From: Cloeon dipterum
Lineage: Eukaryota; Arthropoda; Insecta; Ephemeroptera; Baetidae
Direction of reading: 5' to 3'
NCBI RefSeq assembly: GCF_949628265.1
Contig: NC_088788.1
Coordinates: forward strand, 13,764,001-13,828,000
Length of the DNA: 64,000 nucleotides
The notes under the pieces are model-generated. The model made no database searches. It had not been told where the DNA came from and saw nothing but the letters and a program-made list of their open reading frames with translations. Position 1 is the stretch's first letter. Every line of letters begins with the position of its first letter. Positions 512 through 63,599 of this stretch are shown here, one piece after another. The position numbers and the translations under genes were made by a program.

Positions 512-3500
512 TCAAGGCTTGCAGAAAGGTAACAATATGCTTCCCTTGTCCTCCTGGGCTAAGTAAACATCAGTTGGCTGCGTATCAACGACGAATCTGA
601 CCGAAAGAAGAAACGAGTTGGGCAAAGATGAGCGTTCAGGGTAGTGAACGGATATTGTGGGCATCAGATTGAACGGGCTGGTGGACGTGCACCAAGCGTA
701 ATTCGCGACTCCACGTTTACTTGCCGCCAGCCAGACGTGAAAATTCAAGACGGGAAGCGTGCCTGAGAGAAGAGACAATTATTTTGCACTTTCAATGATA
801 ATGCTTTGCTCACTCATTGATTTGTTAACCAGGCACAAGAGCTCACTTGGACTACTGAAAGAGGCCAATTTGAGGCCGTACTTACAGCACAATGAAGCTG
901 CTGCTTGATACGAAATCTGAATGCAATATGGATATTTATTTAATTATAAATGTAAGACGTCTTCATTGGGATACCCAATCATACGGGATCAGATACTTCA
1001 CTCCGCAGGCGGTGAAAAGTATAACCTTGTTCGCATCAACTAAACAATAATTGTTAACGTTGCAATGCGATATACCTAAATAAAAATCTGGAATCTATTT
1101 ATACCTCTGTTATATAAATAATCATCTCTCATTTGCGGCTGTGGATTAAAAATCAATGTATTAACTCCTATTAGCGCAAAAGTAATGAGTTTACGTCCAA
1201 AACACAGTCATACTCAGTCGGGCATTTCGGTACAGGGCCTGGTAGAGGAACTGCTTCCTAAATTGAAATTATAAAACTGGAATAGAGTGAGACACAACTA
1301 AATATACTGAGGACGCATTTATTTCCACTGTGTTGATTATATTGGCAACAAGATCTGGCGCATTTTCCAGACCGCATTGGAAGATTAACGACGCCGTGTC
1401 GCACTCGTCCATCCCCTCTGTGATATATATCGGTATTTCAAAGTGAACTCTATTTCCTCTATAATGCTTGCTTTTTGAACTGCAAGTTGAAACGGCGATC
1501 ATGTTTTCTTGCAGTATCGCAGAATTAGCTGCCATAATTTCGGCCATCAACAAAATTCTCTCGTCAACCAGTTTTCCATTCAACATCTGATAAGCAGTAA
1601 AATGATAAGTTATCCTTAAGCATAAATGGAACTTACGAATCCTCCATTTTCTCCCATGCATTTCAGAAAGCACTGTTTAAAATAATTATATTTTAGAGTA
1701 TTTTAATTTATTACTGTTGCAAAAATACTTTGATTTTAAGAGAGTATGTGGTTGTATTGAAAATCTGTTTGATTTCATCTAAGGTATTATTTAAAAATAT
1801 TATTTCCCGCGACTGGCTCAAATTTATTATAATCTTAAATGCCTTTGGAGAGGTTGAAAGCTGCTCCGCACTCGTCCACCATTGCCCCAGAACTTGAAGT
1901 CGTTTTGGTCGTGTCCCTCGCCTCGCAAATGTACATTTGGCTGGTCGAGCAGTCCGCATCATAGAGCGTTGCGCTAGTTTGGCTCAAACTAAGAAAGATG
2001 CAGTTTTCCTTTCCGGCATAATTATTTGGTTCTCCCGGTTGCCACTTAGTTTCTTGACTCCTAACCAGTTTGTTCACCGCGCACCATCCGAAATTCCCCT
2101 CGCAACCTTCATCAGTCCCTGATGTCCAAAATATGCCATTTGCGCTCGTCGAATCTGAAGAAAATATTTAATATCAGCTCAGTTAGGAATCGTTTACTAT
2201 ACATACTATTCGCGGCAGCAATAAGGTTATTGTATTCATAATCGAACTCTATGCTGAGGATCTTCATTCCAATTGCGCAACACGATTTAGCTGCATCCAA
2301 CCACTTAAAAATTACACAAACCACCTGTGTGGATTAATTCTTTTGTTGAAATAAGTTTAATTACATTCATTTTCTCCGAGTTGAACACGTAGCTTCTACC
2401 ATTAACTGTAAACCAGAAACCGTGGCTACTTGGATCTGATTTCAAGAGTACCAAATATCATAGAAAACAATTCAGAAACAATTAGTTTACTCGTCAAGTA
2501 TTGAGCAACGCCATCAGCAGGAGTACTAAAAAACGATGGCTGCAAACAAACGAGTTAACAATCAGTCGAACGTACTTTTAAGCCTATTTTTATTACATTC
2601 TTGTCACAATTAAATTCGGGGCATTTTGGAGCAAAGCAAGATGGGGCAGGAGTCGGTTTTCCCTTTGATGAGGAAGGTAAATAGTTTAAAATAAACTTAA
2701 ATTTTGCGTACTTGGCATCCAAAAACGAAAAGATTGGAACAATTTCTGGCAGTCAGAAATACTTTGCTTAGACTTTTGTTCACTTGCAGGTGGACACAAT
2801 TTTCCCCGTTTATAGCACGCGGTTGTCCTGGCATCCAATACGACGACGTGCTGCCAAATGTCGGAAAGTTTGCAGCATTGGGCAGACACCATTCAAACAA
2901 TTGGAAGGTGTCATTCATGCTGGTTTTGTGGGCCGCGGTCCAGTAATTATAATTATACTTCCAAACCGAGGCTACCAAGATTTCATTTTTAGCCGCATTT
3001 CAATATTGATTTTACAAAATATATTCGTACGATTTGTAATATTTTCTAAACATTTCTTTTTGTCTTCGTTTTCCATAGTGATTGGCGTCATTCCCAAACT
3101 GCAGCATTTGTCGTGATTTGTTTGCCAATTCACCTTTTAATTAACATTATAAAATTATTGTACGAATGAAATATTTATTAAACACCAAACGTGTACAACA
3201 GACAACCAACGCAAAACGAGCACTGATCTGTGATTTAACTATTGTGTCTATTATGTATAAATGTCTGTTGTACACCATTGTTTTTAATAAAGATTAAATT
3301 CATTCAAAATTGTTGTACGTTTTTCAACACATAAATTTCAGATAGTTAAGTTTGCCACCATTTCGAGAGTGCTATTAAATATTTCTGTGGTCAGAAAATG
3401 CATCTTGATCATTTACGGTGCCCAAATTTGGTTCCTGCTCTTTTTAAAAAAAGAATATAAGAAACAAATATCTGCTAGTTTAGATATTTGTGATTTGTCA

Positions 3501-5358
3501 TAGGATTTGAAGATATGCACTGGTGACCAAATAATTAAGATCAAAGTCAAGAGTAAGCCGCGAGTTAGACTGTAAGAAAATCCTGCCATCAGACGTGGAA
3601 AATAAGGAATCTATAGTGTTCGTCAACATTTTTCGCCAACCTTTCACAAGGAATGCGCATCTATTACAATTGTAATTGTAGATATTTACTTAAAACAACA
3701 TAAAATTATTTATTTGTAAATAACACCTAAGATAACTCAAACTATCGCGAACTGGAGTTCACATACCACCGTATTCCCCCACAAAAATAATTGGCCACAG
3801 TCCTCTGTCCAGTACCCATACTGTTTTGCATCTAAGGATGATTGTAGATAATAATATGATTTACATTCCGCTTAAATATTAATGCACCAATGAGATGACC
3901 GTCATTGGAATACAGGGACAGCTGATGATTAATTTTAAGTATAATTTATTTCTTAAACTAAAAATCTGGTAATATACGTTTCTCTTGCATGTGCTGTTGT
4001 TGTATTTAAAAATGGTCTATAAAATGAAATTAATATTTTCAGATTTAAAAAGCATGGAAAGTGCAACAAATTTTTCTGGATCGATTGTTGTTGTGAGGAC
4101 CGTGGTGGTTATTTTTTGTGTATCAGCTTCGGTGGCAATGGTTGTTGAGAAACCATGAGCGGTGGTGCTCGGAAAAGTGCCGGAAACGGTGCTTGCGCTG
4201 ATGATGGTTCCGGTGGCAGCGGCGGCGGCGGTGCTGGTGCTGGTGCTGGCTGTAGAGCCATAATCTAGCTGCTTCAATTCATGTTCATTTGTGATTATTA
4301 TCTTTTGGGCTAAAGTTTCTTTGAAATCTGACACTAAAAATCGGTTTGAATCAAGTTAGGTAATTTAAAATGCACTAAAACTACAACTGCTTCGCACACA
4401 CAAGTTAAATTAAAATACTAAACAATTCGATTTACCGTAGTTGGATTTACAGAGGTTGTGGTGGTTGTAGTGGTTGTTGTGGTGGGGGTTGTGTTGGTTT
4501 TGGTGGTGGTTGGGTTGGTGGTGGTGGTGGTGGATACTTCAGTCGTACTGGGTATTACGGAGGGTGCATTCACTGGAGCAGTGGGTTAATGTTTTGAATA
4601 TTTTTCTCGATTAAAATAACAAATAACATATTATACTTGAAGTCGTAGCTATATCGGCGTTGGTCGCAGTTACACCAGGACTGTTTGGTTCAGTCCCAAT
4701 ACGAATTGAATTAGTTGTTTCTGCGTTTTGCTCCTGATTTGTAGATGATTTTTCGGCAATTTGTGTTGATTTCCCTATATCTCTTTCATGTAACTGCGTA
4801 GTACGAATCAAATCTTCAGCACTTGAGGCTGCATTACACAATTTTCAGTATTCGTTCTCCGAAAAAAAAACTGATTTACCGTTGTAAATACCGTTTTTCG
4901 TATTTACAGAAGCCTTTGCTTCCGTTAAATTTTTTTGAGGCTTTGTGTTACTCTTTAAAGTTATTAAATTGATGTTATTCTGGGAAAATATCAATACATT
5001 AAATTTCCTCACTTTCGGTGAAGAAGTGGACTCTCGCGAGATATTATTAAAAGCTTTAGAGCATGATTGTCTACCGCAACATTTGATTATGTATATTCGT
5101 CTCTGTCTGTTTGCTGCAGTTTTGAAGTTTTAGGATATTTAAATTTGAAATAATAATATATGCTACTGACATCGCAAAGATATTCGAATAGGCCCGCCTT
5201 TTAGATTGTATATATTCACTCCTGATGACTCGGAAATTAGAAACCAGCATGCTATCTTCTCGGAATTTAACTATATGTTGACAATATTCGTCTATAGGAC
5301 TAAAATTTTCACTCACCGATACCAATATCACGCAATTGAGAGTTTTCAATTGAGTCAT
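512..5358 (-). CDS. Secreted mucin-like / C-type lectin / OBP mosaic protein, copy 1
   Basis: Function unknown; by domains a secreted, probably O-glycosylated binding protein. Exons in transcription order: 5358-5317, 5102-4892, 4828-4637, 4572-4451, 4268-4068, 4016-3978, 3921-3888, 3831-3767, 3133-3031, 2971-2712, 2662-2597, 2539-2491, 2435-2365, 2303-2207, 2154-1843, 1778-1729, 1672-1637, 1586-1472, 1417-1308, 1257-1195, 1138-1105, 1039-975, 916-814, 762-512. They total 2691 nt, 896 aa, in phase throughout. Residues 1-14 look like a signal peptide (MTQLKTLNCVILVS). Residues 149-256 are Thr/Ser-rich, with long ACC/ACA runs in exon 4. CTLD A is about 270-423, CTLD B 450-612 (GEPNNYAGKENC, sugar-site EPN), OBP-like 613-725 (Cys 613, 639, 643, 685, 694, 703) and CTLD C 747-896. 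Weak junctions: exon 5 donor (GTTGCA), GC donors after exons 15 (GCATTT) and 18 (GCAAGC). The mucin exons are the least certain part. Confidence 0.8.
3191..3275. mobile_element. 85-bp MITE-like element in intron 8 of copy 1
   Basis: GTGTACAACAGACA at 3191-3204 is exactly inverted as TGTCTGTTGTACAC at 3262-3275, enclosing about 57 bp of unrelated sequence. The element is present only in lectin copy 1, not in the matching intron of copies 2 and 3. This fits a small non-autonomous DNA transposon. No coding capacity and no clear target-site duplication were seen. Confidence 0.5.
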
Positions 5359-6935: not shown

Positions 6936-9900
6936 TCAAGGCTTGCAGAAAGGTAACAATCTGCTTGCCGTGCGCTCCTGGGCAATGTAAATATCCGTTG
7001 GTTGTGTTTCAACGACGAATCTGACCGAAATAAGAAACCAGTCGGGCATAGATGAACGTTCAGGGTAGTGATCGGATATTGTGGGCATCAGGTTGAACGG
7101 GCTGCTGGATGAACACCAAGCGTAATTCGCGACTCCAAGTCTACTTGCCGCCAGCCAGGCGTGGGATTCCACGACGGGAAGCGTGCCTGAGAGAAGAGAC
7201 AATTATTTTGCACTTTCAATGATAATGCTTTGCTCACTCATTGATTTGTTAACCAGGCACAAGAGCTCACTTGGACTACTGAAAGAGGCCAGTTTGAGGC
7301 CATATTTACAGCACAATGAAGCTGCTGCTTCATACGAAACCTAAATGCAACATGGGAAATTATTTAATTTGAAATGTAGGACGCTTTAATTGGGACACCT
7401 TATCAAACTGGATCATATACTTTACTCCGCATGCAGTGAAAATTGTTCCATTGTTCGCCACAGCTAAACAATTGTTAACGTTGCAATGCGATCTAACAAA
7501 ATCTGGAATCAATTAATACCTCTATTATTTAAATAATCGTCTCTCATTTGCGGCTGTGGATTAAAAATCAATGTATTAACTCCTATTAGCGCAAAAGTAA
7601 TGAGTTTACGTCCAAAACACAGTCATACTCAGTCGGGCACTTAGGTACAAGGCCTCGTAGAGGAACTGCTTCCTATATTGAAATTACAAAAGTAAAATAG
7701 AGTGAGACACAACCAGACATACTGAGGACGTATTTAATTCCACTGTGTTGATTATATTGGCAACAAGTTCTGGAGCATTTTCCTGGCCGCATTGGAAGAC
7801 TAATGAAGCCGTGTCGCACTCGTCCATCCCCTCTGTGATATAATATCGATAGTTCAAAGTGAACTCTATTTCCTCTATAATACTTACTTTTTGAACTGCA
7901 AGTTGAAACAGCGATCATGTTTTCTTGCATTTTCGCAGCATTAGCTGCCATACTTTCGGCCATCATTAAAATACTCTCGTCAACCAGTTTTCCATTCAGC
8001 ATCTGATAAGCAGTAAAATAATAAAAAATATTCCTCATACACAACAAAAACGGAACTTACGAATCCTCCATTTTCTCCCATGCATTTCAGAAAGCACTGT
8101 TTAAAGAAGTAAAATTTTAAAGTATTTTAGTTTCTTCCTACTACAAAATACTTTGATTTTAAGAGAGTATTTTGTTGTATTGAATATCTGTTTGGCTTCA
8201 TCTAAGGTATTTAAAAATATTATTATCCACGACTGCGACTGGCTCAAATTTATTATAATCTCAAATGCCTCTGGAGACGTTGAAAGCTGCTCCGCACTCG
8301 TCCACCATTGCCTCAGAGCTTGAAGTCGTTTTAGTCGTGTCCCTCGCCTCGCAAATGTACATTTGGCTGGTTGAGCAGTCCGCATCATAGAGCGTTCCTC
8401 CAGTTTTACCCAGTTTGAGATATATGCAGTTTTCCTTGCCGTTGTAATTATTCGGTTCCCCTGGATACCACTTGGCCTCTTGACTTCTGACCAGTTTGTT
8501 CACCGCGCACCACCCGAAATTCCCCTCGCACCCTTCATCGCTTCCAGAGGTCCAAAATATGCCCTCAGCATTCGACGAATCTATATGTATATAAAATAAA
8601 TTTCATTCCGTTATCTATGTTCTTGCTACACCATTGGTTACTTTTGGCTGCGGCAATTAAATTAGTGTATTCGTAGTCAAACTCAATGCTGAGAATCTTC
8701 ATCCCAATTGCACAGCATGCTTTCGCAGCATCCAACCACTTATATTTTGAAATTATACGTGCAGATAATAAGAAAAGATGAAGTATTAATTAAATATTTT
8801 GATTAAAATTACAGTTTGTTTCACTGAACTAAACACGTAGGTCCTCCCGTTGATTGTATACCAGAAGCCATGGTTGATTGGTTCTAAAAAGAATTAAATT
8901 TCAAACAGGGTGGTTTCACTTAAACGAAGAATATTGTATGTACTTGTTAGGTATTGGGTTTTACCATCAGGAAGTGTGCTGAAAAATGAAGTCTGTTGAC
9001 GTACAAATTTCACGATAAATTCTGACAGGTAATGTGATTGTTTTTTACAGTTTTGTCACAGCCGAATGTGGGACATTTTGGAGAAAAGCATGGCGGCGAT
9101 GGTGTAGGCTTCCCCTAATTTTGGAATAGTTAAACATTTGAATTGAAAAACTGCGTTACAGACTTGGCAGCCGAACACGTAGAAATTAGAGCAGTTTTTG
9201 TCGGTTAAATACATTCTTCCAATGCTTTTATTCACTTGCAGGTGCACACAGTTTTCTCCGTTAAAGTTGTTTGGCTGTCCTGGTAGCCAATACGACGACG
9301 AATTGTCAAATTTTGAGTCGGAATTCGTTTGATTAGGCGAACACCATTGAAATGTTCCGTTTGTTCTAGTTTTGCGAGCCGCGGTCCAGTAGTTTGAATT
9401 ATATTTCCACACCGAGGCTAAATTTAAGTAACTAATTCATTTTTATTTTTGAAAGAGAAAAAGTAATTCTCACGTTTAGATAAATTGTCTAAGCATTCCT
9501 TTTTTGTGTCATTTTCTAAAGCGATCGGCATCATACCAAGACTGCAGCATTTGTTGTAATTTGTTTGCCAGTCAACCTTGTCAATCAATGCCATTAATGG
9601 ATTTAAAGCGTTTAAAGGGATGCTTAATTATTAAGTTATAAATATATCATGTAAGTAAAGAGTTCTCAGCAACGAATTTTTGAGGCGGATACTGCTTAAA
9701 CCGAATTTTCACCCAACGGTGGTGGCTAATCAGTTTTGCCAACGGCTGGCAAAATTTGAAGTTGGAATTGAAGTTTGGTAGTGGCATAAGGCTGTTGACC
9801 AATTAGCTCAACATCCAGCCTGTTTTATTTCACGGCGGCTGGCGGCTGACCACGTGATCAAAAAGAAGCCGCCTGGCGCTGCGCAGCGCCGCTTGCAAAG

Positions 9901-11452
9901 ACCTCTATACTATAAGACACTGGAAAGAGGAGAAAGATATTTATGCAACCGGCATTATACGACTGTTTGGCGGCACATCATCCCATCCTTTGCCAGGCGT
10001 TATAAGGAGTTTTAAGTTTTAAAAAATGTATTTCTTTAAATTAAGTTTGGACGGAATAAAACATTCCAATTGAAACAGTCTACTCTGTATATAAGGAATG
10101 AGATTAATGTTTCGTTTGAATGAGTTTTATTTAGTGAAAATAATTTTGACGTACCACTGATTTCCCCCACAAATACAAAATGCCACACGCTTCATTCCAG
10201 TACCCATAATCATTTGCGTCTGTGAAATCGTCGGTTTAAAATTACTGAAAACCCAAATATAAAGTATAGCACCAATAAGTCGCCCGTCCTTGTAGAACAA
10301 TGATTCCTAATAGATTGGGAGAGTGAGTACTATTGAGTATTAACATTAATTTCCTACGTTCTTCTTGCACGTATTTTCCAAACAATCGTAAATTTTCTAT
10401 GGAGATAGGAAAAAATGTATTATAGTCAACCATTTAAAAACACGCACTATATTTGGATCAATGGTAGTAGTGAGGACTTTGGTGTTAGAAGAAATGTCAG
10501 CACTGGAGGAAGTGATTGTGGTGTGTGTAGACAAGTTCATTGTGGAGATAGTGGAAGTTGGCATCATCCACGTTGTTAATATTGCTGCTCTTGTTGTGGT
10601 GGTCGGCCTTTCGGTAGGTGGAAGTGATGCAGATATTGTTGCTGCTTGAGTAATCGTGACTAGGAACAGTTAAAACAAAAATCAATTTTGCTTATTTTTG
10701 TTGATGTTATTCTCACAGGAAGAATGTGTTGTTTTTAAACTTTGCTTGGCCAACGTTGATGTTTCTAAATAAAATTAATTGATAGATTCTTTTAGCATGA
10801 TTTTATAAAGAAAGGACGAGATAATTACTTTGGATTATAGGAAAATCTGTAGATGAGGCTACAATATGATCCGTGACTGATTCTGGAGGAATTAAAATAG
10901 TTTCTGTTCCTTTTTCTTGATCTGAAGTGGCTAAGGGAATATTTTGTTCTGTCGTTTCTACTGACTGTTGGGTACTATCACTCGCTTTGTCAGCATAATT
11001 TGATGTTGTCTGAAATAATATCTCTCCTGCGCTTGTGCCTATGATTCTCTGTTGTATTTTCAAGTTGAATGATTATTTTTCTATTACCGGAAGTAATTTC
11101 AACCGTAGAATTCTTTTTTGATGATAAATTATTCATTTGAGTGCTAGATTGTCGCGCACGCTTGGGTAAAACGTTAACGCAAGATGATTTGCCGCAACAC
11201 TTAATTATGAAATTTCTCTTCTGTTGATCTAAATAAAATCATTTAGTATGATATTGAACAATGCAAAAGCTAATTGGAAACGTTTTGAATTTTTTCTTGG
11301 AGCTTTAATTTGCCGATGGCCTTTTAGAGGCTGGCTGAACAGGACGCAGAAAGTGAACTTCTCATATTTAGATTAGTTGATAGATTAGTTATTTTAAAAT
11401 TATCACTCACCAATACGAAAATCACGCATAGAAGAAATCGAAAGCGATCCAT
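6936..11452 (-). CDS. Secreted mucin-like / C-type lectin / OBP mosaic protein, copy 2
   Basis: Paralog of copies 1 and 3 with the same 24-exon layout. Exons: 11452-11411, 11220-11088, 11038-10829, 10764-10717, 10659-10448, 10396-10358, 10306-10273, 10219-10155, 9576-9474, 9417-9164, 9114-9049, 8992-8944, 8883-8813, 8738-8642, 8580-8269, 8201-8152, 8096-8061, 8002-7888, 7832-7723, 7672-7610, 7553-7520, 7463-7399, 7340-7238, 7186-6936. They total 2562 nt, 853 aa. N-terminus MDRFRFLLCVIFVL is a probable signal peptide; exons 3-5 are Thr/Ser-rich. CTLD A has WLPGQPNNFNGENC, CTLD B WYPGEPNNYNGKENC, and CTLD C lacks an EPN/QPD-type motif. The OBP-like domain has six Cys (about 570, 596, 600, 642, 651, 660). 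The exon 15 donor is the same unusual GC (GAG-GCATTT) as in the other copies. Intron 8 carries a TIR element. Exons 9-10 are nearly identical to copy 3, so the two separated or were homogenised recently. Confidence 0.82.
9660..9905 (-). mobile_element. TIR element (MITE-like), degenerate copy, intron 8 of copy 2
   Basis: Same family as 16805-17064 and the reverse-orientation copy at 61580-61880. The shared order is: TTCTCAGC-type left end, GAGGCGGATACTGC, a GGCTGGCAAAATTT block, then CACGGCGGCTGGCGGCTGACCACG, with AGACCTC followed by TA at the right end. It lies inside an intron, is non-coding, and is richer in GC than its surroundings. Confidence 0.55.
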
Positions 11453-14073: not shown

Positions 14074-17000
14074 TCAAGGCTTACAAAAAGGTAACAATCT
14101 GCTTGCCGTGCGCTCCTGGGCAATGTAAATATCCGTTGGTTGTGTTTCAACGAAAAATTTGACCGAAATAAGAAACCAGTCGGGCATAGATGATCGTTCA
14201 GGGTAGTGATCGGATATTGTGGGCATCAGGTTGAACGTGCTGCTGGACGTGCACCAAGCGTAATTCGCGACTCCATGTCTACTTGCAGCCAGCCAGACGT
14301 GGGAATCCACGACGGGAATCGTGCCTGAGATAAGAGACAAATTTTTTGCATTTTCAAATAAAATGCTTTGCTTACTCATTGATTTGTTAACCAGGCACAA
14401 GAGCTCACTTGGACTACTGAAAGAGGCCAGTTTGAGGCCATATTTACAGCACAATGAAGCTGCTGCTTCATACGAAACCTGAATGCAACATGGGAAATTA
14501 TTTATTTTGAAATTTAAGACGCTTTAATTGGGACACCTTATCAAACTGGATCATATACTTTACTCCGCATGCAGTGAAAATTGTTCCATTGTTCGCCACA
14601 GCTAAACAATTGTTAACGTTGCAATGCGATATATCTAAAAAAAAATCTGGAATCAATATAATATACCTCTGTTATTTAAATAATCGTCTCTCATTTGCGG
14701 CTGTGGATAAAAAATTAATGTATAAACTCCTGCTGTTTGCACAAAAGTATTGAGTTTACGTCGACAACACAGTCATACTCAGTCGGGCACTTCGGTACAA
14801 GGCCTGGTAGAGGAACTGCTTCCTAAATTGAAATTACTATACTGAAATAGAGAGAGACACAACTAAACATACTGATGACGCATTTAATTCCACTGTGTTG
14901 ATTATATCGGCAACAAGTTCTGGAGCATTTTCCAGGCCGCATTGGAAGATTAACGAAGCCGTGTCGCACTCGTCCATCCCTCCTGTGATATTTATCGGTG
15001 GTTCAAATTAAACTCGTTCCTATCTAAAGCTTTTACTTTTTGAACCGCAAGTTGAAACGGCGATCATGTTTTCTTGCAGTTTTGCGTCATTAGCTGCCAT
15101 ACTTTCGGCCATCATCAAAATTCTCTCGTCAACCAGTTTTCCATTCAACATCTGATAAAGCAGTCAAATATTAAATTATCCTTACACATAAACGGAACTT
15201 ACGAATCCTCCATTTTCTCCCATGCATTTTAGAAAGCACTGTTTAAAGAAGTAAAATTTTGAAACATTTTAATTTCTTATTATCACAAAATACTTTGATT
15301 TTAAGAGAGTATTTAGTTGTATTGAATATCTGCTTGACTTCATCTAAGTTATTTCAAACGATTAATTTCCGCGACATGCTCAAACTTATAATAATCTTAA
15401 ATGCCTTTGGAGACGTTGAATGCGGCTTCGCACTCGTCCACTATTGCCTTAGAACTTGAAGTCGTTTTGGTCGTGTCCCTCGCCTCGCAAATGTACAGTT
15501 GGCTTGTCGAGCAGTCCGCATCAAAGAGCGTTCCTCCAGTTTTACCCAGTTTGAGATATATGCAGTTTTCCTTGCTGTTGTAATTATTCGGTTCCCCTGG
15601 ATACCACTTGGCCTCTTGGCTCCTGACCAGTTTGTTCACCGCGCACCACCCAAAATTCCCCTCGCACCCTTCGTCGCTTCCAGAGGTCCAAAATATTCCC
15701 TCAGCATTCGACGAATCTAAATATGAAATAAATTTCATTCCATCATTTGTGTTCTTGTTACACAATTGGTTACTTTTGGCTGCGGCAATTAAATTAGTGT
15801 ATTCGTAGTCAAACTCAATGCTGAGAATCTTCATCCCTATTGCACAGCATGCCTTCGCAGCTTCCAACCACTTATAATTTGAAATTACGTGCAGACAATA
15901 ACATAAGATGAAGTATTAATTAATTATTTTGATTAAAATTACAGTTTTTTTCACTGAACTAAAAACGTAGGTCCTCCCGTTGATTGTAAACCAGAAGCCA
16001 TGGTTGATTGGATCTAAAATGAATTAAATTTCAAACAGGGTCATTTCACTTAAACGAAGAATATTGTACTTGTCAGGTATTGGGTTTTACCATCAGATAG
16101 TGTGCTGAAAAATGAAGTCTGTTGACGTACAAATTTCATGATGAATTTTAACTGGTAAATGTAATTGTTTTTTACGGTTTTGTCACAGCTGAATGTGGGA
16201 CATTTTGGAGAAAAGCATGGCGGCGATGGTGTAGGCTTCCCCTAATTTTGGAATAGTTAAACATTTGAATTGAAAAACTGCGTTACAGACTTGGCAGCCG
16301 AACACGTAGAAATTAGAGCAGTTTTTGTTGGTTAAATACATTCTTCCAATGCTTTTATTCACTTGCAGGTGAACACAGTTTTCTCCGTTAAAGTTGTTTG
16401 GCTGTCCTGGCAGCCAATACGACGACGAATTGTCAAATTTCGAGTCGGAATTCGTTTGATTAGGCGAACACCATTGAAATGTTCCGTTTGTTCTAGTTTT
16501 GCGAGCCGCGGTCCAGTAGTTTGAATTATATTTCCACACCGAGGCTAAAATTCATTCCTTCGTTTTAAATTTATTAAAGAGAAATAATAGTAAATCTCAC
16601 GTTTAGATAAATTGTCTAAGCATTCCTTTTTTGTGTCATTTTCTATAACGATTGGCATCATTCCAAGACTGCAGCATTTGTTGTAATTTGTTTGCCAGTC
16701 AACCTTGTCAATCAATGAATTGGTTAAAGCAATGCCATTTATGGTTTTAAAGTGTTTAAATGGATGTCTTTTTTATTAAGTTATAACTATCATGTAAGTA
16801 AAAAGGTCTCAGCCATGAAATTTTGAGGCGGATACTGCTTAGACCGAATTTTCTGTTAGCGGTGGTCGATGATCATTTTTGCCGACGGCTGGCAAAATTT
16901 TAAGAGTGAAGTTTGATAGTGCCAAATAAAGGGCTGGTGACCAATTTTCTCTCTTCTGGCAATTTTTTTATTTCACGGTGGCTGCAGGGCAGCTGGAGGC

Positions 17001-18611
17001 TGACCACGCGATCAAAAATTAACCGACTGGCGAGACGCGACGCAGCGCAGCTTGCTGAGACCTCTATAAGACACGGTGAAGATAGGAGAAAGATATGCAA
17101 CCGGCAGTATACGACTGTTCGGCGGGCATTGTAAGGATTTTAAGTGTATGTCATTAAATTAATTTTAAATGGAAGGAATCATTCCAATTGAAAAAGTCTA
17201 CTCTGGCTATATATAAGGAATGAGATTAATGTTTGACTTGAATAATTATTATTATTATTGACTTGAATGTTATTTGGTTGCAAATAATATTGATTCACCA
17301 CGGATTTCCCCCACAAAAACAAAATTCCACCCGCTTCGTTCCAGTACCCATAATCATTTGCGTCTGTGAAATCGTCTGTTTAAAATTACTGAAAACTCAA
17401 ATATAAAATATAGCACCAATTAGTCGCCCGTCCTTGTAGAACAATGATTCCTAATAATTGATTGGGAGAGTGAATATTTTTACTGTGGAGTACTAACTTG
17501 AATTTCCTACGTTCTTCTTGCATATGTTTTCCAAACAATCGTAAATTTTCTATATAGAGATAAAAAAATTTATTATTAGTGAGTAATATAAATATTATAA
17601 CACGCACTATATTAGGATCAATAGTAGTAGTGAGGACTTTTGTGGCAGAATAAATGAAAGTACTGGAGGAAGTGATAGTCGTATGTGTAGAAAAGTTAAT
17701 TGTGGAGATAGTTGAAGTTGGCATCGTCAACGTAGTTAATATTGCTGCTCTTGTTGTGGTGGTTGGTTCTTCGGTAGGTGGAAGTGACGCAGAGATTACT
17801 GCTGCTCGATTAATCGTGACTAGGAAAGGTTTAATAAAAAAATTAATTTTGCAGCTTCATATATTATGATGTAATTCTCACAGGAAGAATCTGTTGTTAT
17901 TGAACTTAACTCGGCCAACTTAGATATTTCTAAATATAGTTAATTGTTTTTTTCTTTTAGCATGACATGTCCCAAAAAAAAGGACGAGATATATGTACTT
18001 TGGATTATTTTAAAATCTGTAGATTTAGGCTCCGTGACTGATTCTGGAGGAATTAATATGGTTTCTGTTCCTTTTTCTTGACCTGAAGGGGCTGATGGAA
18101 TATTTTGTTCTGTCGTTTCTACCGACTGATGGGTATTATCACTCGCTTTGTCAGCATACTTTGATGTTTTTTGAAAATTTATCTCTCCTGCGCTTGTGCC
18201 TATTGATTATTTATGTTATTCTCAAGCTGAATGATATAGTTATTCTTTTACCAGAAGTAATTTGAACCGTAGAATGCTTTTTTTGAGATACATTATTCTC
18301 TCGAGTGCTAGTTTGTCGCGCACGCTTGGGTACAACGTTGACGCAAGACGATTTGCCGCAACACTTAATTATGAAATTTCTCTTCTGATGATCTAAATAA
18401 AATCATTTAGCATGATATTGAACAATACAATAAAGCTAGTTGGAAACGTTTAGAATTTTTTCTTTCTCGCTGATGGCCTTTTAGAGGCTGGCTTATCAGG
18501 AAGGAGCAAGTGAACTTCTCATATATAGATTAGTTGATAGATATTAGTGATTTGAAAATTGTAACTCACCAATACGAAAATCACACATAAAAGAAATCGA
18601 AAGCGAACCAT
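14074..18611 (-). CDS. Secreted mucin-like / C-type lectin / OBP mosaic protein, copy 3
   Basis: Exons: 18611-18570, 18384-18252, 18199-17999, 17929-17882, 17819-17608, 17549-17511, 17450-17417, 17363-17299, 16703-16601, 16544-16291, 16241-16176, 16118-16070, 16013-15943, 15870-15774, 15716-15405, 15343-15294, 15238-15203, 15151-15037, 14982-14873, 14822-14760, 14700-14667, 14601-14537, 14478-14376, 14324-14074. They total 2553 nt, 850 aa. Signal-like start MVRFRFLLCVIFVL, then a CC/C segment (to about 58), a Thr/Ser-rich region (to about 212), CTLD A 226-377 (QPNNFNGENC), a Pro/Cys linker (to 399), CTLD B 404-565 (GEPNNYNSKENC, FDADC), OBP-like 567-679 and CTLD C 701-850. OBP cysteines are at 567, 593, 597, 639, 648 and 657, with CFLKC at 593-597. 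Three introns here (16119-16175, 15717-15773, 14325-14375) are multiples of three without stops, so unspliced readings look open; paralogs show they are introns. The family link is secure; the ligand is unknown. Confidence 0.83.
16805..17064 (-). mobile_element. TIR element (MITE-like), intron 8 of copy 3
   Basis: Begins GGTCTCAGCC (16805-16814) and ends GCTGAGACCTC followed by TA (16/17 kb side at 17054-17066), giving inverted ends. The interior matches 9660-9905 in the same orientation and 61580-61880 in reverse. It sits in the intron between the first two CTLD A exons, at the same place as in copy 2. It therefore most likely inserted before those two genes duplicated. Confidence 0.6.
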
Positions 18612-19204: not shown

Positions 19205-21901
19205 TCAAAACAAATCAAATGGTTTTGGCTCACGAAGATAGCCAGGCATACCAGTGAGCGCAGCTACAAATCCTAGCATTGTAAAACTAATGGCATCCTT
19301 GGTCATGGAGTGCAGACGGGGACAATTCATCACTAATCTACAGAACAGATAACCGTACTCTTCTCTGTCGGTAGGAATCATCTCTTCCACGTCGCACTCA
19401 ACTTTCAAAATTTGCAACCTGCGCAGAATCTTCTTTCCCTTTGCCTCTTCCACAATAGCCAGAAGTTCTTCCAAGCCAATGATGTACTTGTTGTTCTCCG
19501 AGAAAAGCGCAACTGAGCGCAGTTTGGGCGCTTGCAGCAGTTGGAGTGTGAGTCCCGGCTGCACAGCAACGCTAGCATGGTGGGACATTCGCACATTCAA
19601 TTCTCGCAGCTTACTCAGCGTTTCTGGCTTCAGTTTGCTCGAAGAGACTAAACGCTTTGCATAGATGTTCAGTTCACTCAGATTGGGACACAACTCAAGC
19701 ACCTTAGACACGTCTATGGTGCTGCGGACGAGCAAGTGCAGTTTGGTCAGCTGGCGTCCAAGTCGACCGAAAATAGAGTAGCATTCGCGCATGGAAGGCA
19801 TGATAAAGAGACCCAGTTCGGACACATTGGAGAACCGATCATCAATTGTAAGAGGTCCCTCAGGATTGACGACAAAGAAAGACTTGAGTTTAGGAAAGGT
19901 GACGCATTGCGGGATGGTTGGCAGACCCACCAGCTGCATCTTCTGCAGACCCAGTTGACATGGCTTTTCCAGCTCTTCCAGCACCATGGCCATTAAATGG
20001 CCATTGATGCACAAGTATGCTTCTTGGTAATCCAACATAAAGTCCCTCTTGATGGCAAAGCCCACTTCTAACAGACCAGGCAGATGCTGGAAGCAGAGCT
20101 CATACAAGAGGGATTCCTCGCAGATTTGATCAAGATCCTCAAAGTAGAACTTCTGCAGGTGCTGTAACTTGGCGAGGGCAGCAATTCCTGTCTCCGACGT
20201 GGTTTCATCTGCATACACTTTAAGCACCCTGAAAGAAAAAATTTTATGACGGTTTAAAATTGAGTTTTTATTCAAACTTTAAGGGAATTTAGGAACGTAC
20301 ACCCAGGCTAGAAGCATGATTTTTTTAGAAAGGAAAATAAATCAGGATGTAACAATTTATTTTTCAGTTGCGATATTGGCACATAATGTGACAATTTTTT
20401 TAAATAACCCTCTTTCCTAACTGGCCAAACTCTTATTTTCTATTTTCTTTTTATTTCGCTTCTGCAACTTGCTAATAGGTGAGAGAGCATAAAACCGCTC
20501 TCAAATTTAATTAGATCCTGGGGTTCTGGGGTTGCCACAATCACCAAAATTTTTCATTTACGTTAAATGTTTGCAGTGATTTTATGAACATGAACTTGCA
20601 ATGTTTGCTCGCCTACCCCCTACCCAGATCGAGCACTCATGTTTTGTCAAAATTTTCTTAATGGACTGGGGATTATACAAACAACCTTCTTAAACCTAGG
20701 GGAGAGGAGATATATACAAAATTACCTGAGCTCTTGAAGGTCTGTCGCAATTTTGCAAAGGTCTGAGTCATCAACTGGAAAATGATCCAGTTCCAAGACT
20801 TGCAAGCTCTTGAACTGCAGCAGGTGACTGAAGAAAGGTCTCAGGTTCCAAGTCATGTGTTCGCAAGCACCCCTTCTGATCAATTCCTTTAGATTCTCTG
20901 GGTTGACAGCAACAAGACTTTTCCACAGATCAGTGACCTCCTTACAGTCACTATTGGCGGTCACCGGAAACTGCAGCGACTCCATCTTATTGTTCAACAG
21001 CTTCTGCATCATTCTGCACTGCAATGCGCACTTTGAGTCCTCGACTTTAACCATTTGAGTTGCTGCTTTAGCATTCACCAGCTCAGCCTCCAACGAAATC
21101 AATTCTGACTTCAACGGGTTTGCTAGAAAAAGGATGAATATTTAATATTATGACAAGGTATTAATTTTTAACTGTTGCATAGAACATTTTAGGATTTTTT
21201 TAAGATTAACTATTTGTTCTCAGAAATGTTATAGAGTTAATTCATATGGTACTAACAAAGCTGTTACCATTCTTGGCAGTATGAAAATTCAAATTAAATC
21301 CAGCAATATTTTTTTACTTACAAATGCAATTGAAGGGATTGGTCGGGTTGAGTGTCTCATCAGTGAAAAACTCTTTGTTTTCCAGAATGCACCTGAGCGT
21401 CATCTTCTTCAGACTGTCTGCAGCAAATTTGAACCGACCAGCACGAATCTCCAACACGCGACTGAAATTTCATAAAAAGACGCAACATAATACATGTATG
21501 AACAATAAAAATATTTGACTTCGGACTAAATATACAATATAATATATCTACGCAAATACATATCACTAATAAATTCACTCGCAATTCTCAGTTTCCTCCA
21601 TTTAAGAATAACATGGAGCGCCCTATTTGGCCGAGAATTAAGCGAGTACGTATGTCAACATGAGTCGTGATTTTTCCATACATTCCTTTGTTAAGTAATT
21701 AAAAATAAAAACTCGTAAGTAAAAAAAACCAATAATGTGTAATTATTTATGGTAATTATACATATACGTACATAAGCAAGACAATAACAAACTATAATAC
21801 CTCGCGCCATGTGCAAATCTGTCCCGCTGTTGCATTTCAACTCCCAACTTGTGATTTTCTTGCATTTCTTTAAGAAACTCTTTCTTTCTGTCTTTATTCA
21901 T
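19205..21901 (-). CDS. Leucine-rich-repeat-like protein (LRR/FBXL-like)
   Basis: Four exons: 21901-21801, 21461-21322, 21122-20726, 20228-19205; 1662 nt, 553 aa, all phases match. It starts MNKDRKKEFLKEMQENHK after a normal leader. Residues 1-35 are charged and possibly coiled. Residues 35-80 hold RVLEIRAGRFKFAADSLKK, an all-helical-looking segment. From about residue 140 onward irregular leucine-rich repeats are seen (LQVLELDHFPVDDSDL, LQHLQKFYFEDL, LTKLHLLVRS, LSELNIYAKRL, LRELNVRMS, LQILKVECDV). The pattern resembles insect LRR proteins related to F-box/LRR adaptors, but I see no convincing F-box, so ubiquitin-ligase function is not claimed. No signal peptide, so probably intracellular. 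A decayed duplicate lies at 11941-12440. The promoter side holds a conserved block gcgccctatttggccgag near 21630 that is retained in the relic. Confidence 0.85.
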
Positions 21902-30128: not shown

Positions 30129-33029
30129 ATGGCTCCCTATTTCACCACCGGATACCCTTTCCAAGGTAGGAACATTTTTCCGTTACCTGTAACTGCAAAA
30201 TAATTTAATTTCAAATGTTGGCCCTTAATGTTATAAGATTGGGTAATTTTTCTACTGAGGGTATTCCCTTTGAAATTTTTTAAATTACCCCTAACTGCAT
30301 ATGTAATGCTTTGAGATTAAATTTTATTTTTTGCACAGCCTATATTGTTAAAAGAAATTTTTGTAAAGAATGCAAAGCTGCGTTACTGTGCAGTGTTTAA
30401 TGACCTCTGCGAAATCATGAATGTGTAAAATGTCGAACATAAAATTATAACTTTTATCAAGTTCTTTTAAATCAAGAAGAAAATTAAATAATGCAACATT
30501 TAAAAATTTGGTTTTAGTAATAAGTTACTATTTTTATAATAATTGTTTATTTTTTATTTTAATATGTTGACACCACAAGTCCCTTGCCAATATACATAAT
30601 TAAATTTAAATTATATCCTCAATGTTACTGAAATATTGGTTTTTAAATTCAATGATGTTATAAGACAGGTCAATGCAATTTTAATTATGCTGTGCATGAA
30701 CTGGTCGAGGAAAAGTTTTGAAATCCAACGCGTTTTGTGTCAATAATATTCAGGTAGTAAAACGAATCGGAGCATAATTTACACATATTATATGATTTTA
30801 TTTCATTGGGCGGAGCCTTTGAAGGGATTTGCAACAAAGTTTATGGACTGAAGCTATCAAGTGCTTCGTGGAACTAAAAAAATATTATTTTTATATTTTA
30901 TTGATGTTGTGTGCACACTCGATTAGGTCATGGATCGACCTTTAGAAGTTCATGCTGACATTTTCTTTGATCGGTGCGTAAAAATTTTCTGCTAATGCAC
31001 GAAAAATATGTTCACCAAAACATTTAAGCTAAATAATTTAGGAAGAAGAGCACAATATAAAAACCTAAAACAACATTTAAACCGGGAAATTGATTTGTTT
31101 TTTATAATAAATTTAAGGAAAAGTCTTGCAATGCAATATATATTTTAGTTCCAGAATATTTTAAAATTTCTTTAATTATTTTCTTCAACCTTCTGTTAAT
31201 ATTGTGTTATGCCAAAAAAAAATTGCAAATTAGGTTTTGCATGCTCGGCATTCTTCACTTAGCCACGAGATTTTTGCTTTATTAATTTAATTTGGTCTCG
31301 GGGCTGGATTCCAACCCGACGAGAAGAGCGGCGAGGAAAAAGGAAAAAAGCCAAAAAATCTGGTGTATGTGTGTGTAATCGGGGGCGTCGATCGCGGCGG
31401 TCGAGTTGAGAGAAGAAGTCTTCAGCACAGAGAGAAAATATATATCAGCATGACTCAATCTGGCAGTCAGTCAGTCGGTCGGTCGTGTTTTCGGCGATAA
31501 TTGCGTCCGATAGCGCGGCGAAAGAGCCCCAAAGAGTACTAATCCGACGAGCCGGCCGGCCGACCGCGGCTTAGCCGTGACATTTTATCATATCTGCTAT
31601 TTAATATCACACACACAGCGAGATACACCTCGTGCACAACGCGCCGCATAAGCCGCCGCGCGGCCGGGAGAGTGAGTGAGAGAGAGAGGGACGAGAAATT
31701 ACTCTCTCATCTCACACGCGGCGGCTCCTTTGATGTGCCCGCGCGCGGTGTTTTTAATAACAAATGGGCGGATTATGCCCAGGCAGTCGCGCGCTCGCTC
31801 CCCTTCATTATTTCAATCAAAACACCGACCAGCCAGGCAAAACCTTCATATTCTGTCGCTCTCTCTAACCCTTCACACTCGGCACACAGGCAATTTTTGT
31901 ACTGAGAGTCGAAATTCCTGCAATGATTGAGACGCTCGGCCGTTTTCCATTATTATTGTTATTTATTCGGTGTGGGGCAGTTAATTTTCTCCTATTTTTG
32001 GACGCAGTGTGTTGCCCACGATGAAATAAATTTGGAAAGATGTGTGTATGTGAAGAAATAATTTACGTCACTTATTTTTGTTCCGAAAAAGATGCTGGAT
32101 GTGTAGGATGTGCCATTATCGTTATTTCAAATTTTATCTTTATTAGTCCTTCATAATGTTTATTACTCAGAAATTTTCCACAACTTAATAATTTTTCAAT
32201 TCCCATAATGCTTTCTTTTATTCCAAGAAGCCCCGAAGGAACAAAAATTGAATATCAAATTGTTTACATATTTATGTGTAAAAAGGCTTAAAACTTAGGC
32301 TGTCTAAATGGGCCTTCAAAGAAATATTTAAAAATTAAATAGATACATGAAGGAAAAGCTAAACTTTGCGTGGGAATTAATTTTTTATTTTTAAAGGACC
32401 GCATCCTGAATTGATTTGCGCGCAGAGTTTAGCTATACTTGTTAATTTTTAAACTTCATAAATTGCTATTTAGTTCTTTTATCTATGATTTAAATTAGAA
32501 CAAACTTATTGCCCGGTAAACCGATCAAAAATATTTTTTGGGAGTTTTTTTTTCAAGATTCAATCAAATTTTTAAATAAAATTGACAGGTCTCATTAATT
32601 TATTGCTTCATCTCTTTCGAGATGGTTGGGGGTGACCCCGTGATAGCAAACGGAACTCGCGAAAACTCCGCGTCCCGATAAAATCCCGAATAAATATTGG
32701 GAGCACGGGTGTCATATTATGGAAGAATTCCAGTCCAGAAAAGGACCATCAGCTCGTGTTATTGCCCCCGCATCGGGGTCTTTAATTAAACTGCTAGACA
32801 TTTGTCCCGTGCGAAATTAATTCACGCATGCTATAGAAAATGCAAACTATAGCAAGTATCATAGAAGTGAGTCGGAAAAAATGTCCTAATCCTACTCCGA
32901 AATCTGAATGGAATCGCAATTGCAATGCAAAGCATGCTCAACAATGCGAGCCAATTACGTCTTAGTTGGTTGTATTTTCACAGCCTTTAAAATAATAAAT
33001 ACATAGCATTAATTATTTAAAATGGCCTC

Positions 33030-33128
<99 letters not shown>

Positions 33129-36100
33129 AGGTGTTGGTTAAAATTTTCCAAAATTCTTCGATGCATCCTAGTAAGGTGGATTCTTTTTGTCGGTGTTGCA
33201 GGTCAGGGCCGGGTGAACCAGCTGGGAGGTGTGTTTATCAACGGGCGTCCGCTGCCGAACCATATCAGACTGAAGATCGTGGAGCTTGCGGCAGCCGGGG
33301 TGCGTCCGTGCGTCATCTCACGACAGTTACGCGTGTCGCACGGCTGCGTGTCCAAGATTCTGAACCGCTACCAGGAGACAGGTTCCATCCGGCCGGGCGT
33401 GATCGGCGGCAGCAAACCGAGGGTGGCCACCCCCGAGGTCGAGCGCCGCATCGACCAGTACAAGAGGGACGCACCCGGAATCTTCTCCTGGGAGATCAGG
33501 GAGCGCCTGATCAAGGACGGCGTCTGCGACAAGGCGTCCGCACCCTCCGTCTCCTCAATCAGCCGCCTCCTGCGCGGAGGCGGTGGTGGGGGCGGCAAGA
33601 GGGACTCGACGGACGAGCACATCAAGAACCACAACATCGACACAATCCTCGCTGGTGAGTAAATATATTCTCATTTTTTTAAAAATTTCAAGTGCGTAGT
33701 TAGGTATATAATATACCTTATGTAAGGACACAGGAAGACGATATATATCATGTAAAAACCGATTATTAAGGAATGGAGTGGAACCCAAGGGAATAACACA
33801 GTTGTTTATTGTTCATGAAAAAACATTAATTTAGTAAAATAGTTTGTGTTTTCTGTAACGGAGGAGCCTCTTTATATATATCATATAGATGTAGGCAAGT
33901 ATAAATGGAGCAAAAAGTTGCCCTGCTGGCCCATAATAATAAATAAAGTTGAACCTATCAGGAAAAACATTAAAGATTTTTGTTTACAAAAATTATAAAT
34001 TTATTTATAAAAATCTTGTAAAACAATCAAGATGTACTTAAAATTGTACCGCCATTTAAACTTTTATAATTAATTTATTGTGCTCCGAAAAACATCTTGA
34101 TAATCCGTCTTAATTTTGCACAGTTCAACTAATAATCTTCACCAATTCTTGATTTTGTCTTTATAATTGTCGCAATTTCGCTTAAATTCATCATTAATCA
34201 AAAGCCGCGTTATTTTTAGATTTTAACAGTGAATTTTCAACTTTTTTCGGTACATTTTACCTTTGCCGAGATATTATGCTTGTTTTGTATAGGCTTTTAG
34301 TTCCATTCAGCCTATCCTATTTCTGCTCATTTGACACGTTTACGCGTTTTCCTCTCCATTCAATTCATTGTACCGTATGCCATATATTTTCTATTCAACA
34401 AGTCATTCATTTTCTCACCTTCCGAGAGTGCGTGTGTGGCTTTTAGCTTTTCTTCAAAGAAGCGAACGCACACCGGCGAGCCCTTTTAATTTAACATTAT
34501 TCGTTCGCTGGCCGCTGTCGGTGCTGAGGGAGAAACCACAAAAACAATTTTCCAGCCGAGATCTGCACCGCGAGGCACACAGGCACGCCAATCATTTTGT
34601 CACTTCTGACTTGCCTCGGCTCATTCCCGCGCGCGCAGAAGGAAAAATGAGAATTTTATGAGAGCTCGTTTGAGCTGGAGTTGATTGCATTATGTTTCAT
34701 ATTCAATATAAATGTTTTCGCCCACGCGAGGCACGCTCAAGCACTTCTCACTTTTGAATTAATTCACTTTGAATGAAGCTCGTGACCACGTTTCCACTAA
34801 AGCTGTGGTTTTCACCCACGAAAACGCTTACTTTTTTATACATTAACTTCATAGATCAACTATTTAAAGAGGATTGATACTGCAAAAGTCTGGGAAATCC
34901 TTATGTTGCCACTGCATGGTCTCTTACCTTTTTGATCCAGTTGAAGCCAATAAAATTGACCTAAGCAGCACTGTAAACATTAGCATGCCTTTCAATTGAC
35001 TGTTTCCATATACTTGAAATCTGATTTTATTTCAATACAAACAGTTTCCACAAAAATTTTCATACACTCTGTTGAATAGATCTTGACGAGAAGAATCGAA
35101 ATCTGCCAAGGAAATGTTGTTCAAAAGCGCAGTACAGTTTGGAGAAAATTTGGAATTTTTTTGCAAGTAGCAACGTCCTTTTTTTATTACATATTGCAAA
35201 TTGCGTAGAGCAAATATTTTATCGATCAACTCTCATCTTGGTAGTGGAAAAGTTGCGCATATCGCTCTTCAAACAGACACACAGTTTGAATTGTTGATTT
35301 GATTGTTGCCCTTTTCTTGTAACAAGAAAATTCGCGTTTTGTTGTTGAAAGTTGCGCAATTTTTCTGCTACCAGGAAGAATTAATAAAACTTCTGGTCTT
35401 TTGAGCAAAATTACACAAAAATGCCAAACAATATGTCTTTGAATCGTTACAAAGTTTGTCTAATTTGGCCTAACCCCCGAGTAAGAGAGAGGGAGGAAGT
35501 TGAACAATCTAACACATACCATCTGTACAGCTTGCGAAAGATTAATGAATTAAAAAGACAGACCTTTCAATTAATAATGACTATATAGCATCTAGAATAA
35601 ATTATCACTTTGGCCCCTTGGGGTGAAACCCTTGAAATCCTCCCGCATTCCTTGCATTCCCGCGTGGCCGCAAAGCGCAATTTGCATCAGCAGGCGGCGG
35701 CTCGTGGGCCTAATGTGACGTGTTGGGATGGTATAAAATTTCAATTTGGATTTTAATTCGGCCGCCGGCGGGGCGGCGTGTGTGGGCGATTTGCATAATT
35801 ATTGGGCCGTTCTTCATTCTCGCGCGCGGCTCCAGAGTGAGTGTGTATGCGTGTGACGTGTTGTGTAGCAGCATAACACGGCGGCGGCGGCCACCAAAGA
35901 AGCGGAGAGCCAGCAGGGGGCCGCGTTGATTGGGTGTTGCCCTTTGTGCAGGTGTCACTGGCCGCCTTTGTCCGTCCGCGCGTCGGCTCCTCTGTCCCCT
36001 TTCCTCCTATAGCGGGGAGGAAATTTATGTCTCTGAATTATGCGCACAGTGGCTTTTGCCTCAGCACTAAAAAATAAATCCACAGGTAAAAAGATAAGAT

Positions 36101-53335: not shown

Positions 53336-63599
<10,264 letters not shown>

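What the first reader, a model, noticed from the sequence alone, without database searches (positions are those of the whole stretch)
14074..18611. Fusion of three C-type lectin domains with an odorant-binding-protein domain
Joining the minus-strand exons by phase gives one protein: signal peptide, mucin-like region, CTLD A, CTLD B, OBP-like domain, CTLD C. The OBP part is supported by its six cysteines, spaced X25-3-41-8-8, the CFLKC core and the C-X8-C end, which match classic insect OBPs. OBPs are normally small stand-alone secreted carriers, and I know of no described lectin-OBP mosaic. A protein that could bind a sugar surface and a small hydrophobic ligand at once would be new, perhaps in sensing, immunity or mucus-like matrices. 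The architecture is seen directly in three paralogs; the role is inference.
Basis: partly seen in the sequence, partly recalled or inferred. Interest (0 to 1): 0.92.

Follow-up and report, generated by a model that had tools for sequence, protein, structure and literature searches.

The report
Mayfly lectin–odorant-binding-protein mosaic genes
A mayfly genome carries a large family of genes in which an insect odorant-binding domain is built into a chain of lectin-like domains, so this mayfly's famously large set of odorant-binding genes may be mostly something other than ordinary free odorant carriers.

Summary
The fusion is real. In window 14074-18611 (minus strand), 25 phase-consistent exons encode one 875-residue protein: signal peptide, KCCG motif, Thr-rich stretch, CTLD-A, CTLD-B, six-cysteine OBP domain (PF01395, 43.9 bits, cut-off 22), CTLD-C. 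CTLD-B's end and OBP Cys1 share one exon. The genome is Cloeon dipterum (mayfly). All 26 proteins of the first relatives search come from Cloeon or Neocloeon and keep the six OBP cysteines. Genome-wide, 145 of 148 OBP C5-C6 exons found lie under 3 kb downstream of a CTLD exon on the same strand (opposite strand 0 of 148): about 150 mosaic loci. The OBP looks like a phase 0-0 exon cassette. The published '191 OBP genes' of this species may therefore be mostly mosaics; identifiers could not be mapped. Most likely role (inferred): OBP domains held in a mucin/lectin layer on wet surfaces rather than free in lymph. No transcript, structure or ligand was tested; structure prediction was never available. 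Ten paper searches listed no title or abstract opening that describes a lectin-OBP mosaic. The proteins are already in databases, uncharacterised.

The parts
14074..18611 (-). Copy 1: complete CTLD-CTLD-OBP-CTLD mosaic gene, 25 exons, 875 aa
   Evidence: Pfam (on the first, 22-exon model)
18570..18611 (-). Exon 1, start codon and signal peptide
   Evidence: strongest hydrophobic windows start at residues 4-7 and none elsewhere exceeds 1.2
18252..18392 (-). Exon with the conserved IIKCCGxxSC motif
17608..17819 (-). Thr-rich (mucin-like) exon
   Evidence: 34% Ser+Thr in residues 61-240 against 16% in the rest
16291..17549 (-). Linker A and CTLD-A (exons E4-E8)
   Evidence: Lectin_C 21.4 bits, cut-off 22.6; matches CTLD-B
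15405..16241 (-). Linker B and CTLD-B (exons E9-E13); the last exon also holds the OBP start
   Evidence: Lectin_C 40.2 bits
15405..15716 (-). Junction exon E13: end of CTLD-B (EPN ... YICE), linker and OBP helix 1 with Cys1, one open frame
14873..15441 (-). OBP domain (end of E13, then E14-E17), Cys at residues 592, 618, 622, 664, 673, 682
   Evidence: PDB OBPs matched
14074..14822 (-). Linker C and CTLD-C (exons E18-E22), diverged
6936..11452 (-). Copy 2, same architecture; exon peptides verbatim in annotated P0001 (LOC135940609)
512..3831 (-). Copy 3, CTLD-A to CTLD-C part; corresponds to annotated P0002 (LOC135938329); N-terminal exons upstream not placed

Best explanation
This is a gene family, so far seen in baetid mayflies, of predicted secreted glycoproteins in which a PBP/GOBP odorant-binding domain was inserted, as a symmetric phase 0-0 exon cassette, into a multi-CTLD protein. 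The composite gene then multiplied to about 150 copies in Cloeon dipterum. The most likely working is that the Thr-rich stretch and the CTLDs hold the protein in an extracellular glycan or cuticle layer while the OBP domain takes up small hydrophobic molecules there: an OBP fixed to a wet surface instead of a free carrier. Shown: domains, fusion, copy number (lower bound), purifying selection in the window copies. Inferred: cassette insertion, secretion, anchoring, ligand binding, and a place on gills or other nymphal surfaces.
For: One exon joins CTLD-B to OBP Cys1. Both Pfam families match over their cut-offs. Six OBP cysteines in 26 of 26 relatives; a nine-member profile matches 21 PDB sequences, named odorant or pheromone binding proteins or mosquito AGAP accessions. 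In 15 of 15 loci of other subfamilies where the OBP start lies on its own exon, a phase-0 intron sits exactly at YICE|ARDT or its equivalent (14, L025), and the OBP ends in a phase-0 intron in copies 1 and 2. 145 of 148 OBP C5-C6 exons have a CTLD exon just upstream. A three-CTLD protein model without OBP exists in Neocloeon (P0037), a plausible pre-insertion form. No strong hydrophobic stretch beyond the signal peptide; 16 N-glycosylation sequons. Almudi 2020 (passages): 191 OBP genes, 82 of 167 expressed in gills.
Against: No transcript, protein, ligand or glycan data here. Whether the gill-expressed OBPs of Almudi 2020 are mosaics was not mapped. The sugar motif is not conserved across the family, so lectin activity may be lost in many members. 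The queries used to count OBP exons came from mosaics, so stand-alone OBPs may be undercounted; an OBP exon without CTLD exons in its 3.2 kb exists (L001). 3 of 148 C5-C6 exons had no CTLD exon found nearby. Anchoring is inferred from composition and domain type only.
Confidence: 0.45

Rival explanations
1. Mucosal or humoral immunity: the CTLDs recognise microbial glycans and the OBP domain binds microbial lipids or acts as a spacer; the expansion reflects an arms race, not chemosensing.
For: CTLD proteins are common insect immune recognition proteins (general knowledge); large clusters in the genome; CTLD-B varies between EPN, QPD and other triplets; CTLD-C evolves faster than the rest (dN/dS 0.32-0.61).
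Against: dN/dS among the three window copies is low over junction exon plus OBP (0.18-0.23; OBP2-5 alone 0.21-0.38) and CTLD-A (0.13-0.15). The expression published for the species' OBPs is in nymphal heads and in gill cell clusters positive for a neuronal marker (passages), though not mapped to these genes.
Confidence: 0.27
2. Structural matrix protein: the OBP domain is only a disulphide-stapled helical module between lectin-fold modules in a mucus, silk, egg-coat or cuticle matrix, with no ligand.
For: Cysteines and a few other positions are the invariant OBP columns; Thr-rich stretch and many glycosylation sequons; CTLD sugar motifs often lost.
Against: The OBP keeps near full-length Pfam similarity in both the window subfamily and two D-subfamily members (43.9, 42.9 and 46.5 bits).
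Confidence: 0.2
3. The apparent fusion is two or more adjacent genes wrongly joined.
Against: Single-exon junction in this gene; one open frame reaches OBP Cys1 in 96 of 97 D-type matches and 8 A-type matches; same order in 50 stretches (48 places) read; annotated proteins with this order in two genera, apparently from two C. dipterum assemblies; intact phase across the OBP-CTLD-C boundary in copies 1 and 2.
Confidence: 0.03

Closest known systems
Classic insect odorant-binding proteins (PBP/GOBP, Pfam PF01395; e.g. PDB 5dic, 3q8i)
   Same: Six cysteines with classic spacing, near full-length Pfam match, sequence matches to solved OBPs
   Different: Embedded in an 875-residue multidomain protein instead of a small stand-alone carrier; the domain is spread over five exons of a lectin-type gene
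D7 and double-domain OBPs (recalled, not fetched)
   Same: OBP domains in a larger secreted protein
   Different: Those repeat OBP domains; here the partner is a different fold (CTLD) plus a Thr-rich stretch
Multi-CTLD proteins, e.g. Neocloeon P0037 (LOC132205034) and the beetle protein P0042
   Same: Tandem CTLDs; P0037 shows the same CC and CPxxxC linker style
   Different: No OBP domain found
The 191 'OBP' genes of Cloeon dipterum, Almudi et al. 2020 (PMC7250882; abstract and passages read)
   Same: Same species and domain family; comparable number (about 150 loci here)
   Different: Main text does not use the word lectin; whether its supplement notes the extra domains was not checked

Membership tests
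PBP/GOBP odorant-binding protein domain | Pfam PF01395 match over the curated cut-off, near full length | tested here: met
   43.9 bits, profile 4-112 of 113; two D-subfamily segments joined by hand 42.9 and 46.5 bits
PBP/GOBP odorant-binding protein domain | Six cysteines, C2-X3-C3 and C5-X8-C6 | tested here: met
   copy 1 and 26 of 26 relatives
PBP/GOBP odorant-binding protein domain | Six-helix fold with a ligand cavity | not tested
   Structure prediction was busy at all 15 tries (last); fold inferred from PDB sequence matches
Odorant-binding protein as a functional class | Small soluble stand-alone carrier | tested here: not met
   875 aa, multidomain
Odorant-binding protein as a functional class | Binds small hydrophobic ligands | not testable with these tools
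   needs protein
C-type lectin-like domain (CTLD) | Pfam PF00059 over the curated cut-off | tested here: inconclusive
   CTLD-B 40.2 bits met; CTLD-A 21.4 against 22.6; CTLD-C none, but homologous to CTLD-B
Calcium-dependent sugar-binding C-type lectin | EPN or QPD motif plus further calcium ligands | tested here: inconclusive
   CTLD-B EPN 10, QPD 8, other 8 of 26; the WND-type ligand reads LFDADC in copy 1 (WND recalled; sequence)
Mucin | Long Ser/Thr/Pro-rich O-glycosylated region | tested here: inconclusive
   34% Ser+Thr over 180 residues, 10 prolines; no tandem-repeat test made; glycosylation not testable

The most novel reading that the evidence does not exclude
Mayflies turned the OBP into a surface-bound sensor or trap: about 150 genes that pair varied lectin-type heads with varied ligand pockets, fixed in the mucus or cuticle layer of gills and other nymphal surfaces, so the largest insect OBP repertoire reported in 2020 is mainly a new class of matrix-held recognition proteins suited to life in water.
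Probability: 0.3. Interest if true: 0.92.

Novelty: new variant of a known kind. Interest (0 to 1): 0.8.

Why it matters
OBPs are treated as small free carriers, and gene counts are read as a measure of olfactory capacity. If most of this mayfly's OBP domains sit inside lectin mosaics, its record count, and the inference that gills smell by ordinary OBPs, need re-reading. The family also offers a clear case of what looks like exon-cassette insertion followed by massive expansion, and a testable idea for how a binding protein can work on a surface open to water.

Tried and rejected
Rejected: adjacent genes joined by mistake (single-exon junction; same order in 50 stretches, 48 distinct places; these stretches were chosen because they match the junction exon, so the informative part is the OBP exons after it and the CTLD exons before it). 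Rejected: shared pseudogene stop in CTLD-C of copies 2 and 3; it lies in a short intron with conserved donor and acceptor. Rejected: 'no OBP match'. Led nowhere: Pfam-family search of the genome for OBPs (1 place at E 0.001 and 4 places at E 10), probably because OBP exons are short; searching the genome with a stretch of PDB 5dic (nothing, uninformative); a search for paralogs of the stand-alone OBP exon at C3:3625510 (itself plus one place at E 0.87); paper searches for a lectin-OBP fusion (one search was for the species' OBPs): no listed title or abstract opening described one; two searches listed only 20 of 213 and 25 of 139 papers. Structure prediction never started, so fold and cavity are untested. 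Stand-alone OBPs could not be counted. dS was saturated for CTLD-B (55 codons) in both comparisons with copy 3, so no ratio was obtained there.
Full report
What is there. The window belongs to Cloeon dipterum: the genome's contig C1 has 43,195,403 bases, the same as the contig behind Cloeon dipterum proteins P0012 and P0041, and 19 of 19 exon peptides of copy 2 occur verbatim in Cloeon protein P0001. On the minus strand, 25 exons from 18611 to 14074 give one 875-residue protein in a single frame (an earlier 22-exon model is). It aligns end to end with P0001 at 89% identity.

Domains. Pfam gives Lectin_C 47.5 bits and PBP_GOBP 43.9 bits on the joined protein (22-exon model). Separately, CTLD-B passes (40.2), CTLD-A is just under its cut-off (21.4 of 22.6) and CTLD-C is not recognised. 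Profile comparison makes A-B and C-B homologous (E 9e-25 and 7e-16) and finds no link between OBP and CTLDs. The OBP cysteines are spaced 25-3-41-8-8, and all 26 relatives keep six cysteines with 25-27, 3, 41-43, 8-11, 8. A profile of nine members matches 21 distinct PDB sequences, named odorant or pheromone binding proteins or mosquito AGAP accessions; the single sequence matches two OBPs.

Why it is one gene. E13 (15716-15405) carries the end of CTLD-B and the OBP's first helix and Cys1 in one open frame. All splice phases agree in copy 2. Between copies 1 and 2, dN/dS is 0.18 across E13 plus OBP (205 codons) and 0.14 in CTLD-A; CTLD-C is looser, 0.32 to 0.61 over the three pairs. In the first protein search all 26 proteins are Cloeon dipterum or Neocloeon triangulifer; 26 of 26 carry precomputed PF01395 and 19 of 26 also PF00059. 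The second search listed 20 proteins, 4 of them already; 19 of the 20 are Cloeon or Neocloeon and one is a beetle CTLD protein without OBP. The third (OBP segment only) listed 12: one Cloeon protein (P0043) and 11 fragments with no organism named (sources jgi, lgn, ena). These searches start from shared five-residue words, so more distant relatives can be missed.

How many. With E13 as query, 150 of 573 genome candidates were scored; all 150 passed and 99 reach OBP Cys1. A D-subfamily query gives 97 strong matches followed by a drop from 103 to 68 bits; 96 of the 97 reach Cys1 in the same frame. C5-C6 exon queries gave 115 places (all 146 candidates scored) and 96 places (150 of 166 scored) at E 0.01, 148 after merging. 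With all CTLD matches (262 places after merging), 145 of the 148 have a CTLD exon less than 3 kb upstream on the same strand (median 724 bases, 139 under 1.3 kb); on the opposite strand 0 of 148, downstream on the same strand 0 of 148; the three without are at C2:34724004, C3:2410235 and C3:13742279. In the 50 stretches read (L002-L051; 48 distinct places, since L026/L050 and L031/L042 coincide; three are the window's own copies), at least two OBP exons including C5-C6 follow E13 in 50 of 50 and another CTLD exon precedes it in 50 of 50. A CTLD exon after the OBP was found in 41 of 50: 15 of the 20 long stretches and 26 of the 30 short ones, some of which end early. Score limits for the short exons were low (10-15 bits). 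Four 9.9-kb control stretches of the window and L001 showed no such array; the only hits of 12 bits or more in the four window stretches were two to CTLD exon profiles in the stretch that holds the lone CTLD exon.

How it arose. In 15 of 15 loci of other subfamilies whose OBP start lies on its own exon (14, L025), an intron lies exactly after YICE or its equivalent: donor GT in 10, GC in 5; acceptor AG 15 codons before the DEC motif, phase 0 at both ends. In eight of the 14 the script's list shows that AG; in the other six I read it from the printed sequence. The OBP ends in a phase-0 intron in copies 1 and 2, and CTLD-A also ends at phase 0. So the OBP behaves as a 0-0 cassette placed between two CTLD modules, with this intron lost in the window subfamily or gained in the others. 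A three-CTLD Neocloeon protein model without OBP (P0037) shows a possible earlier form. A tree of 27 rows needs 4 changes of genus label, 3 of them forced by well-supported branches, so some subfamilies appear older than the Cloeon-Neocloeon split.

What it may do. The protein has a signal peptide, no other strong hydrophobic stretch, 16 N-glycosylation sequons and a Thr-rich region. CTLD-B carries EPN in 10, QPD in 8 and other triplets in 8 of 26; all 19 D-subfamily loci printed read GHP there. My preferred reading is a matrix-held OBP. Almudi et al. 2020 (PMC7250882; abstract and passages) report 191 OBP genes (167 complete), 82 of 167 expressed in gills, and three in gill cell clusters positive for a neuronal marker. 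That about three quarters of them could be mosaics is an inference from numbers alone; I could not map identifiers, and supplements were not readable. The same paper states that its gene models used RNA-seq hints. Proteins labelled 'Hypothetical predicted protein [Cloeon dipterum]' (P0003, P0009, P0021, P0022) sit on other, shorter contigs and probably come from that assembly. That is indirect support for transcription, no more.

What is known in print. Ten paper searches were made, all that were allowed. No listed title or abstract opening described a lectin-OBP mosaic; some lists were capped. I opened only PMC7250882, PMC5381652 (passages: four OBPs found in a damselfly) and PMC11597413 (no occurrence of lectin, OBP or odorant). 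Most subscription journals and all supplements were out of reach, so this is not proof of absence. The proteins themselves are already in public databases, mostly named uncharacterised.

Limits. No structure prediction ran (15 busy replies, the last). At least one OBP exon without CTLD exons in its 3.2 kb exists (L001), and stand-alone OBPs could not be counted. Named relatives outside Baetidae with an OBP were not found, but other mayfly genomes could not be searched directly.

Noticed in passing
window 512-3831 against 14074-17363: Copy 3 is far from copy 1 in CTLD-A (dS 1.53) but close in OBP2-5 and CTLD-C (dS 0.18-0.19), which suggests gene conversion of the 3' half.
   Followed up: partly
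window 15405: The intron after the junction exon has a GC donor in all three copies, and copy 3 also has GC after the fourth OBP exon.
   Followed up: no
window 33021-33662 and 56298-56723, + strand: Two very similar paired-box exons (PAX 239.9 and 209.7 bits), with a homeodomain exon at 62710-63258; probably a tandem Pax3/7 (gooseberry-type, recalled) pair.
   Followed up: partly
window 51922-52146, + strand: A lone CTLD-like exon similar to CTLD-B, with no Pfam match at E 0.01.
   Followed up: partly
window 19205-20278, - strand: A 357-residue open frame just upstream of copy 1, leucine-rich-looking, with no Pfam match at E 0.01.
   Followed up: partly
L001 (G000:C3:3625495-3625665): A classic OBP exon with C2, C3 and C4 together, no CTLD exon in its 3.2 kb and no close paralog found.
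   Followed up: partly
G000:C1 39-43 Mb and C4 33.5-36 Mb, smaller on C5 and C2: Clusters of the D subfamily (97 junction-exon matches in the genome); the long stretches often show an additional CTLD exon upstream.
   Followed up: partly
P0017-P0020 and P0023-P0026 (alignment A1): In these eight members CTLD-B has lost both cysteines that in most others stand in ENC and DADC; seven of the eight read QPD and one EPN.
   Followed up: no
P0044-P0054: Fragments without a named organism (sources jgi, lgn, ena) encode relatives of the OBP exons, perhaps mayfly DNA in environmental samples.
   Followed up: no
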